64,000 nucleotides of DNA from Valencia hispanica. Its lineage: Eukaryota > Chordata > Actinopteri > Cyprinodontiformes > Valenciidae. This document shows positions 34,897 to 36,867 of the stretch, in pieces (positions within the stretch are counted from its first letter, which is position 1; each line of letters begins with the position of its first letter). The DNA is taken from positions 46,085,680 to 46,149,679 of the forward strand of contig OY747702.1 in NCBI GenBank assembly GCA_963556495.2, written 5' to 3'. A program made the position numbers and the translations under genes. The notes under the pieces were generated by a model. The model worked only from the letters and a program-made list of their open reading frames with translations. It was not told where the DNA came from and did no database searches.

Positions 34897-36867
34897 TCAG
34901 ATAGAGTCCTTCAGCGGCCACTGGAGAGACGCCAAGATGCGGTGGGGGGGTATGATGGCATCTGGCTGAATCGGGACGGTGGCTTGGGAGTGCTGACGGG
35001 AGAGGGCGTCAGCCTTACCGTTTTTGGAACCGGGCCGGTAGGAGAGGTGAAAGTTGAAGTGTTCCAAGAGAAGCGCCCAGCGAGCCTGGCGAGGGTTTAG
35101 CTGCTTGGCGTTACGAATGTGGAGGAGGTTCTGGTGGTCTGTCCAGATTAGGAATGGCTCGGACGTCCCCACGAGCAGATGGCGCCACTCCTCCAGAGCC
35201 CACTTCACCGCCAGAAGCTCATGGTCACCAACCCCATAGCGCTGCTGTGTGGGAGTGAACTTCCGAGAAAAGAAGCAGCAAGGGTGTAGCTTCTGGTCCG
35301 GACCACGTTGGGACAAGATTGCCCCAACCCCAACCTCTGAGGCATCCACTTTGACGGTGGAGGTCTTGGCTGGGTCTGGATGGATGAGGATGGGAGCTGA
35401 GGTGAACAGTGTGATGACTTGGTTGAACGCTTGTCGGGCCTCGGGGGGTAGACTGAACAAGCGTGGCCGGTCGGTCGACTTTGTAAGGTTGGTGAGTGGA
35501 GCAACAATCGTGCTGTAGTTCCGGATGAAATTTGCAAAGCCAAGGAAGGACTGGAGCTGTCTGAGGGTCCGGGGCAGTGGCCATTCCTTCACTGCTGCCA
35601 CCTTCTGGGGATCCATGGCTACCCCTTCAGCCGAGATGACGTAGCCTAGGAAGGTGGTGGAGCGCTGGTGGAAAGCGCACTTCTCCAATTTGCAGAATAG
35701 ATTATTCTGGAGTAGGCGCTCAAGGATGGCTCGGACATGTCGGACGTGATCCATCTCAGAGATGGAGTAGACCAGGATGTCATCCAGATATACGAATACC
35801 CACCGTCCGAGCATGTCCCGTAGCACATCATTGAGCAGCCGCTGGAACACTGCTGGGCTGTTGCAGAGACCGAATGGCATCACCAAGCACTCCCAGTGGC
35901 CAGAGGGGGTGCTGAACGCCGTCTTCCATTCATCCCCTTTTCGAATGCGAACCAGATTGTAGGCATTCCGGAGGTCGAGCCGAGTAAAAATAGTTGCATG
36001 GGAAAGGGAGTTCAGAACAGTGTTCAGCAGGGGGAGTGGATGGCGATCCTTTATGGTGACCTGATTTAGTCCTCTGTAATCGATGCAGGGACGCAGCGTC
36101 CCCTCCTTCTTTTTGACAAAGAAGAAGCCGGCTGATGCTGGAGAAGTGGATGGGCGGATGAATCCTTGGTCTAGAGATTCGGCAATGTAGGTCTCCATCT
36201 GGGCTGATTCCGCTTGTGAGAGAGGGAACTGACGGGTGCGTGGAGGCTCCGCCCCTGACATCAGGTTGATAGCCATATCATAGGATCGATGCGGTGGTAA
36301 CTTGGCAGCTCGGCTTTTACTGAAGACCTCCGCCAGGTCTTTGTAGGGCGGAGGGATATCTTCCAGTGCGGGCGCCGATATGGTCTCGAGCGGGGCTGAC
36401 GATGGGGGAGGGAGACACCTCTTTGCACAGTCGGGACCCCAGCTGAGTATCCGCTGCGCCGACCAGGCGATGTGCGGATCGTGTGTATGGAACCAAGGAT
36501 AGCCCAGGATGAGTGGCGCGGAGCAGGAAGCGATGACGAGGAACTGGATGAGGTCTGTGTGATCCCCCACCCACAGGCGGATCTTGATGGTGCGATGTCG
36601 GACAGGGTAGGGCTGCAGGGGGTGTCCGTCGACGGAAGTCACCGGGACTGGACTGCAAAGGGTCTCCAGCGGTATCTGGAGCTTCGTGGCTAGTTGGGTG
36701 GAGATGAAATTCTCCGCCGCTCCAGTGTCGAGCAGAGCGCCGAATGTATGCTGTGGATTGGGATGAATGAGCTGGACAGGAAGAAGGAAGCGAGCTGGTC
36801 CTGTCGGGCCAGGTAAGACCCCCCCGAGTCTCACCTGGCCTGGTCGTTTCCCGGTCGGAGCGGGCAC
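34897..36867 (-). pseudogene. pol: Gypsy pol: protease, RT and RNase H; no integrase
   Basis: A 656-codon frame with no ATG at its start (the first codon here is GTG), as expected if reached by -1 frameshifting from gag. Domains in order: aspartic protease with 'LLDTGA' (residues about 46-50); reverse transcriptase with 'YRGLN', 'TRLDLRNAYN', 'MPFGLCNSP' and the catalytic YLDD (360-363); RNase H with D508, E550, D577 and D620, ending in 'GSKNGKADALSR'. The frame closes at TGA (34899-34897), but in-frame similarity continues as 'SALVQEPAPPETPPNRLYVP' to about 34836. The TGA therefore looks like a CpG-decay change from CGA. Full-length gypsy pols go on into integrase; this one is cut off. It would have made the enzymes for cDNA synthesis in the particle. 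Confidence 0.92.
36807..36852 (-). promoter_or_regulatory. Programmed -1 ribosomal frameshift signal
   Basis: Read on the minus strand, the heptamer G GGA AAC lies at 36852-36846 in the gag reading frame (codons ...CCG GGA AAC), which fits the X XXY YYZ rule. After a 5-nt spacer there is a hairpin: 8 bp (36840-36833 with 36814-36807), one G-U pair, then 4 bp (36831-36828 with 36819-36816), closing an 8-nt G-rich loop. The gag TGA is inside this hairpin. Slipping back one base reads directly into the pol frame ('GKRPGQVRLGG'). PEG10, a mammalian gene derived from this class, is known to use the same heptamer. Confidence 0.88.

What the first reader, a model, noticed from the sequence alone, without database searches (positions are those of the whole stretch)
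36807..36852. Textbook -1 frameshift signal in a fish sushi-class gypsy, same heptamer as PEG10
Seen: G GGA AAC in the gag frame, a 5-nt spacer, a 13-bp hairpin enclosing the gag stop, and a pol frame that lies exactly at -1 and has no ATG of its own. Known: PEG10, a mammalian gene derived from a sushi-ichi-type element, frameshifts at the same heptamer. Inference: this copy preserves the ancestral arrangement, and its stimulator looks like a simple long hairpin, unless the G-rich 8-nt loop pairs downstream to form a pseudoknot. It is useful for comparing how the signal evolved before and after domestication.
Basis: partly seen in the sequence, partly recalled or inferred. Interest (0 to 1): 0.75.

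Follow-up and report, generated by a model that had tools for sequence, protein, structure and literature searches.

The report
Fish retrotransposon gag-pol frameshift signal
A fish copy-and-paste genetic element carries what looks like a clear signal for some ribosomes to slip back one base and so add a second protein; it is a good example of a known kind of signal, and it has the same slip site as a mammalian placenta gene related to such elements.

Summary
Confirmed. On the minus strand, G GGA AAC (36852-36846), a 5-nt spacer and a long hairpin (36840-36807) end gag; pol lies at -1. The hairpin ranks first of 825 slippery heptamers in the window; the best fold has 15 bp. The element is a Tf1/sushi-type chromovirus, by chromodomain in a sister copy and an 11-nt self-primer complement. 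The window copy is truncated, without integrase, chromodomain or 3' LTR. In the host genome, 39 of 39 further scored copies keep heptamer and spacer, 38 the stem. Five gags from other elements end in RPGN plus four residues; cyprinid gag and pol peptides together force GGGAAAC. Another, largely fish clade appears single-frame. Seven distant chromovirus contigs share the layout (2 GGGAAAC, 5 GGAAAAC); six have a 5-8-bp loop-downstream complement, of which three beat 95% of shuffles. The fish loop does not (915 of 1000 shuffles as good), so a plain hairpin is favoured. That Tf1/sushi elements mostly use -1 frameshifting is published (PMC10085805). New member of a known kind; frameshifting itself not measured.

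The parts
36846..36852 (-). slippery heptamer G GGA AAC, in gag phase
   Evidence: 39 of 39 further scored copies
36841..36845 (-). 5-nt spacer GACCA
   Evidence: 39 of 39 further scored copies
36807..36840 (-). putative stimulatory hairpin: 15 bp with GGGG loop in the minimum-energy fold (13 bp with TCGGGGGG loop in the shorter reading)
   Evidence: 13-bp stem unchanged in 38 of 39 further copies
36831..36833 (-). gag stop TGA, inside the 5' arm of the hairpin, 12 nt after the heptamer
   Evidence: 40 of 40 places including the window
36775..36805 (-). second hairpin (7-bp stem), one nt after the first; role unknown
36831..37745 (-). gag ORF from ATG (304 aa plus stop): Retrotrans_gag, CCHC knuckle, C-terminus CPLRPGNDQAR
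34897..37011 (-). pol frame (-1 to gag), open: aspartic protease, RT, RNase H; no integrase
37748..38029 (-). 5' LTR (TGTCAGGA...TGACA), about 40 nt shorter than a 322-nt sister LTR
37910..37920 (-). putative 11-nt self-primer GCTCAGTCATC (would mark the 5' end of the transcript)
   Evidence: read in the window
37736..37746 (-). putative primer-binding site GATGACTGAGC, complementary to the self-primer, overlapping the gag ATG (37745)
34829..38029 (-). extent of the element in the window (5' LTR to where homology with sister copies ends); integrase, chromodomain and 3' LTR missing

Best explanation
This is the gag-pol junction of a Tf1/sushi-type Ty3/gypsy chromovirus. Most ribosomes would read gag through G GGA AAC and stop at the TGA inside the hairpin, giving Gag. 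A fraction, held up by the 15-bp hairpin five nucleotides downstream, would slip back one base (GGA AAC re-paired on GGG AAA) and continue in the pol frame, giving a Gag-Pol fusion whose pol part begins RPGQVRLGG. The stimulator is most likely the long hairpin itself, possibly with the second hairpin after it, and not a pseudoknot. Shown by sequence: heptamer, phase, spacer, predicted hairpin, -1 frame, presence in the sister copies. Inferred: slippage, its efficiency, the role of the hairpin. The copy in the window is a truncated fossil; the signal would matter in longer sister copies.
For: Geometry and chance. Family: 40 places scored (best 40 of 198 first-look candidates), one of them the window itself; the other 39 all keep heptamer, spacer and the TGA 12 nt on, 38 the stem. 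Other fish: of 15 gag hits, the 5 that run on to a C-terminus right after the CCHC knuckle all end in RPGN plus four residues, as the window does. Cyprinid gag GNGQTR read together with pol GKR[PT][DN]QVK, from different copies, leaves GGGAAAC as the only heptamer in 3 of 3 pairs. RT tree: the 6 usable rows with this signature lie in one 26-row clade, 100/98, with 20 unlabelled rows. Distant chromoviruses: 7 of 9 contigs with a gag end that I read share heptamer type, a stem paired from 5 nt on (7 of 7), and the stop in the hairpin. Precedent for the group: PMC10085805 (passages).
Against: No frameshifting was measured. The 39 further copies are 98-100% identical over 251 nt and were picked by similarity to a query that contains the signal, so they show recent descent more than long constraint. 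No DNA of a divergent fish family was obtained (protein query to the host genome did not complete), so the hairpin is not shown to be conserved in other fish; codon-compatible stems in other fish were not clearly better than shuffled peptides (4-18 of 60 as long). The Denticeps and Nothobranchius gag/pol pairs, from different copies, fit no common DNA over their whole length (0 solutions). One further gag hit, P0015 of Danionella, goes on differently after its CCHC knuckle.
Confidence: 0.92

Rival explanations
1. The stimulator is an H-type or kissing pseudoknot: the G-rich loop (C)GGGGGG pairs with CUUCCU(G) 16-23 nt downstream, in the manner of PEG10 and some distant chromoviruses.
For: Such pairings exist (best -6.8 kcal/mol, 7 bp, several of them G-U). 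PEG10 has a pseudoknot (PMC2800197, PMC4598141, passages). Six of seven distant loci have a 5-8-bp loop-downstream complement.
Against: 915 of 1000 shuffles of the 40-nt downstream stretch pair the window loop at least as well. The minimum-energy stem closes the loop to GGGG, and the partner lies in or beside a second hairpin with pair probabilities of 0.91-1.0 in its main stem.
Confidence: 0.15
2. Gag and pol are expressed without frameshifting (by splicing around the junction or internal initiation of pol), and the heptamer is a codon accident of the conserved RPGN peptide.
For: Some annotated fish proteins join gag and pol around the junction (e.g. P0022, P0023, P0025, P0050, P0052, P0063), and another clade appears to use one frame.
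Against: Those joins may be gene-prediction artefacts over a -1 overlap, an error that PMC10085805 describes for Tcn1 (passage). The pol frame has no ATG before or within the protease. An in-phase heptamer with a 5-nt spacer and the most stable hairpin of the element is not expected by chance, and the layout recurs in distant chromoviruses.
Confidence: 0.05
3. The mechanism is as in the best explanation, but the heptamer shared with PEG10 is convergent: the fish clade and the PEG10 ancestor reached G GGA AAC separately.
For: Five of seven distant relatives have GGAAAAC; another clade appears single-frame; the proxy Gypsy-15_Ano lacks a frameshift (PMC11011659, passage); the stimulators differ.
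Against: Same 5-nt spacer as PEG10 (PMC2800197, passage), homologous gag, and GGGAAAC also in two distant loci, L003 and L011.
Confidence: 0.35

Closest known systems
Tf1/sushi-group chromoviruses (sushi-ichi of Takifugu; fungal members)
   Same: Chromodomain, SH3_Tf2-1 and integrase in a sister copy, 11-nt self-primer complement, -1 gag/pol layout, which PMC10085805 reports as predominant outside fission yeasts (passages).
   Different: The sushi-ichi sequence itself was not in hand, so its heptamer and structure were not compared. The window copy lacks integrase, chromodomain and 3' LTR.
PEG10 (domesticated sushi-type gag-pol gene of therian mammals)
   Same: Heptamer G GGA AAC and 5-nt spacer (PMC2800197, passage); gag homology (PDB 7lga is the only hit, E 4.5e-9).
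   Different: PEG10 has a pseudoknot stimulator (PMC4598141, PMC2800197, passages); the fish signal has a long hairpin with no supported pseudoknot.
Distant chromovirus contigs binned in bacterial MAGs (L001, L002, L003, L005, L006, L011, L012; hosts unknown)
   Same: pol at -1; GGGAAAC (2) or GGAAAAC (5); 5-nt spacer; gag stop in the hairpin.
   Different: Stop in the apical loop 18 nt after the heptamer, not in the stem 12 nt after. Loop-downstream pairing beats 95% of shuffles in 3 of 7 (L001, L002, L011) and about 90% in 2 more (L005, L012).

Membership tests
-1 programmed ribosomal frameshift signal | X XXY YYZ heptamer in the zero frame | tested here: met
-1 programmed ribosomal frameshift signal | stable RNA structure a few nt downstream | tested here: met
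   (5-nt spacer, 15-bp hairpin, by prediction)
-1 programmed ribosomal frameshift signal | downstream ORF open in the -1 frame and homologous to pol | tested here: met
-1 programmed ribosomal frameshift signal | measured slippage | not testable with these tools
   needs a reporter assay
Tf1/sushi chromovirus | Ty3-type gag, PR, RT, RNase H | tested here: met
Tf1/sushi chromovirus | chromodomain at the C-terminus of integrase | tested here: met
   sister copy piece L056; missing from the window copy by truncation
Tf1/sushi chromovirus | self-priming: 5' transcript end complementary to a PBS next to the 5' LTR | tested here: met
   11-nt exact complement, by sequence only; the transcript start was not tested
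Tf1/sushi chromovirus | grouping with sushi-ichi in an RT/IN tree | not tested
   no sequence known to be sushi-ichi in hand; the one Takifugu row, P0099, lies in a different, 69-row unlabelled clade of the tree, and whether it is sushi-ichi is unknown
PEG10-type signal | heptamer GGGAAAC with 5-nt spacer | tested here: met
   against PMC2800197 (passage)
PEG10-type signal | downstream pseudoknot | tested here: not met
   no support beyond chance, 915 of 1000 shuffles as good; no pseudoknot-aware folding program was available

The most novel reading that the evidence does not exclude
Tf1/sushi elements of distant hosts, of fish and of the ancestor of PEG10 share one inherited frameshift module: a GG(G/A)AAAC heptamer, a 5-nt spacer and a stem that encloses the gag stop, with a pseudoknot as the older stimulator. 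The fish clade has replaced the pseudoknot by a 15-bp hairpin that hides the stop codon in the stem, while PEG10 kept a pseudoknot.
Probability: 0.3. Interest if true: 0.55.

Novelty: new member of a known kind. Interest (0 to 1): 0.36.

Why it matters
PEG10 is a well-studied mammalian gene that uses -1 frameshifting, yet the metaviral proxy that PMC11011659 chose for its ancestor has no frameshift. A young, multi-copy fish family with the same heptamer and spacer but a different predicted stimulator gives a comparison for how such a signal changes before and after domestication. The distant chromovirus loci suggest that the layout is old and that pseudoknots and plain hairpins may replace one another at one site.

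Tried and rejected
Relatives in viral contigs: two scans with window proteins, one with alignment A1, one DNA pattern and one with L003 gave no relative. The one genome-contig scan gave 13 loci. Nine had a gag end that I read; seven are used. L008 was set aside (pol in the gag frame behind a TGA), and L007 (pol at -1, with a different in-phase heptamer, CCCAAAA). L004, L009, L010 and L013 were not analysed beyond the motif scan.

Pseudoknot in the fish signal: enumerated and tested against shuffles; not supported. Codon-compatible stems in other fish from peptides alone: compatible, but 4-18 of 60 shuffled peptides did as well, so not used as evidence. A fused frame in the family was looked for and not seen. 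In the tree, P0007 and P0050 were dropped (too little RT), and proteins whose CCHC knuckle runs on in other ways (e.g. P0063, P0088, P0099, P0102, P0130) were left unlabelled. Four key papers, recalled as Shigemoto 2001, Manktelow 2005, Clark 2007 and Gao 2003, are not held and were not read.

Searches for an earlier report of GGGAAAC in a fish sushi element: listings. I saw none there, but these cover open-licence papers only; the original sushi-ichi papers could not be searched, so no claim of priority is made. Papers seen as passages: PMC11011659, PMC5009743, PMC4598141, PMC10570562, PMC2800197, PMC12839241, PMC3406341, PMC10085805, PMC4340606.

Full report
What was claimed. All of this is in the sequence at those coordinates. 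The first methionine of the pol frame is residue 246, well after the protease motif at residue 95. The most stable fold takes the stem to 15 bp with a GGGG loop, and a second, 7-bp hairpin follows one nucleotide later at 36805-36775.

Chance. Among 825 X XXY YYZ heptamers (Y = A/T, Z not G, all phases) on the two strands of the window, this one is followed by the longest perfect stem (15 bp; the next has 11) and the most stable 55-nt stretch (-30.1 against -21.2 kcal/mol). It also starts the most stable of 672 41-nt stretches sampled from 38300 to 34940. Dinucleotide shuffles reach its stability in 1 of 500 (53 nt) and 2 of 200 cases (107 nt).

The element. Gag matches Retrotrans_gag above the Pfam cut-off, and DUF4939 and Ty3_capsid below it; pol holds an aspartic protease, reverse transcriptase and RNase H. 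Homology of the window copy with sister copies runs from 38030 to 34829 and stops there; a partial reverse-transcriptase match lies beyond on the plus strand. The window copy therefore has a 5' LTR (about 40 nt short), gag and the first part of pol, but no integrase, chromodomain or 3' LTR. In a sister copy the frame goes on to integrase, an SH3_Tf2-1 domain and a chromodomain. The LTR (322 nt in one sister copy) contains an 11-nt exact complement, GCTCAGTCATC, of the sequence that begins one nucleotide after the LTR. That is the signature of Tf1-type self-priming, which PMC10085805 gives as a common feature of the Tf1/sushi group (passages). The primer-binding site overlaps the gag ATG. So 'sushi-class' rests on tests and not only on resemblance, although no sequence known to be sushi-ichi was compared, and the only Takifugu row of my tree (P0099) lies in another clade.

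Copies in the host genome. The window lies in a 1.29-Gb assembly. Forty places were scored out of 198 first-look candidates, all 98-100% identical over 251 nt; one of them is the window itself (L014). All 39 others keep the heptamer, the spacer and the TGA 12 nt on; 38 keep the 13-bp stem; 37 have the same loop and two have one and three extra Gs. Of the 29 others with longer flanks, 23 have gag open for at least 1000 nt upstream and in 14 the pol frame stays open to the end of the held piece. One copy has a single-base insertion in the loop that shifts the frame downstream. Of three copies whose 3' side was fetched, two show LTR pairs, 98.8% and 99.7% identical, and the third showed no 3' LTR in the piece held; the two suggest recent movement. 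The copies are too alike, and were chosen by similarity to the signal, so they show the layout in an amplified family and not long-term constraint.

Other fish. Of 15 gag hits, five run on to a C-terminus just after the CCHC knuckle (two Haplochromis, one Denticeps, one Nothobranchius, one metagenomic): all five, like the window, end with RPGN and four more residues. One hit (P0015, Danionella) continues differently. Pol-frame proteins of Denticeps, Nothobranchius, Labeo and Cirrhinus read GKR at the matching place. Where gag reads GN and pol reads GKR over the same bases, only GGGAAAC fits. For cyprinids the longer peptides also agree: GNGQTR with GKR[PT][DN]QVK leaves GGGAAACGG-CA-ACCAG with one open last base in 3 of 3 pairs, all made of different copies; the annotated proteins do not show the gag stop there, so its place in cyprinids is an assumption. 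For Denticeps and Nothobranchius the pairs at hand, also from different copies, fit no common DNA (0 solutions). In an RT tree of 112 rows the six usable rows with this signature lie in one 26-row clade (100/98) with 20 unlabelled rows.

Distant relatives. A scan of bacterial and archaeal genomes gave 13 chromovirus-like loci in bacterial bins (hosts unknown, 38-49% identity in the best segment). Of nine whose gag end I read, eight have pol at -1 and one in the gag frame. Seven have a comparable site: GGGAAAC in L003 and L011, GGAAAAC in L001, L002, L005, L006 and L012, the gag stop 18 nt later, and a stem paired from five nucleotides after the heptamer in 7 of 7, with the stop in its loop. 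Several stem pairs change on both sides and stay paired (columns 13-46, 15-44, 19-40), while others are broken in one or two rows (for example 15-44 in L001, 22-37 in two). Folding is better than shuffles in L003 (0 of 500), modestly in L005 and L006 (12 and 16 of 500), and not clearly in L012, L002, L001 and L011 (63, 84, 132, 237). Six of seven have a 5-8-bp complement of the loop downstream. Against 1000 shuffles of the downstream stretch, as good or better were 0 (L002), 14 (L001), 43 (L011), 88 (L005), 110 (L012), 333 (L006) and 660 (L003); L006 and L012 are close to each other. This supports a pseudoknot in some of them. The same test on the window gives 915 of 1000: no support there.

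Mechanism. The best reading is ordinary -1 programmed frameshifting: tandem slippage from GGA AAC to GGG AAA while the ribosome meets the hairpin, giving Gag and some Gag-Pol. Non-slipping ribosomes meet the stop codon inside the stem, 12 nt on. Slippage and efficiency are inferred; nothing was measured.

Comparison with PEG10. PEG10 slips at GGGAAAC with a 5-nt spacer and a pseudoknot (PMC2800197, passage; PMC4598141, passages, 22% in their reporter). The fish gag profile finds PEG10 as its only match among solved structures (E 4.5e-9). So heptamer and spacer agree, and the stimulator appears to differ. Whether the heptamer is inherited or convergent is open: it is present in two distant loci, but the apparently single-frame clade, the GGAAAAC loci and the proxy Gypsy-15_Ano without a frameshift (PMC11011659, passage) show that junctions in this group vary.

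Novelty. PMC10085805 states that Tf1/sushi elements outside fission yeasts predominantly use -1 frameshifting, citing Gao et al. 2003 (passages). The finding is therefore a new, well-supported member of a known kind. What is added is the family census, the forced heptamer in cyprinids, the contrast between hairpin and pseudoknot, and the self-primer.

Noticed in passing
37920-37910 and 37746-37736 (-): An 11-nt putative self-primer in the LTR is complementary to a primer-binding site that overlaps the gag start codon, so the element has almost no leader between LTR and gag.
   Followed up: partly
L001, L002, L005, L006, L011, L012 (gag-pol junctions): Chromovirus contigs binned in bacterial MAGs carry junctions with loop-downstream complements of 5-8 bp (possible pseudoknots) and, in all of these but L011, a G GAA AAC slip-like site.
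   Followed up: partly
33766-34676 (+): A frame with a partial reverse-transcriptase match on the plus strand, LINE-like by eye, lies next to the truncated 3' side of the element.
   Followed up: partly
38098-38234: A perfect TTGA array of 34 copies, with a LINE/SINE-like tail by eye, lies close upstream of the element's 5' LTR.
   Followed up: no
41510-42184 (+): A G-rich minisatellite (unit AGGGTCGAAGGGATG and longer periods) may account for part of the strong positive GC skew between 36 and 44 kb.
   Followed up: no
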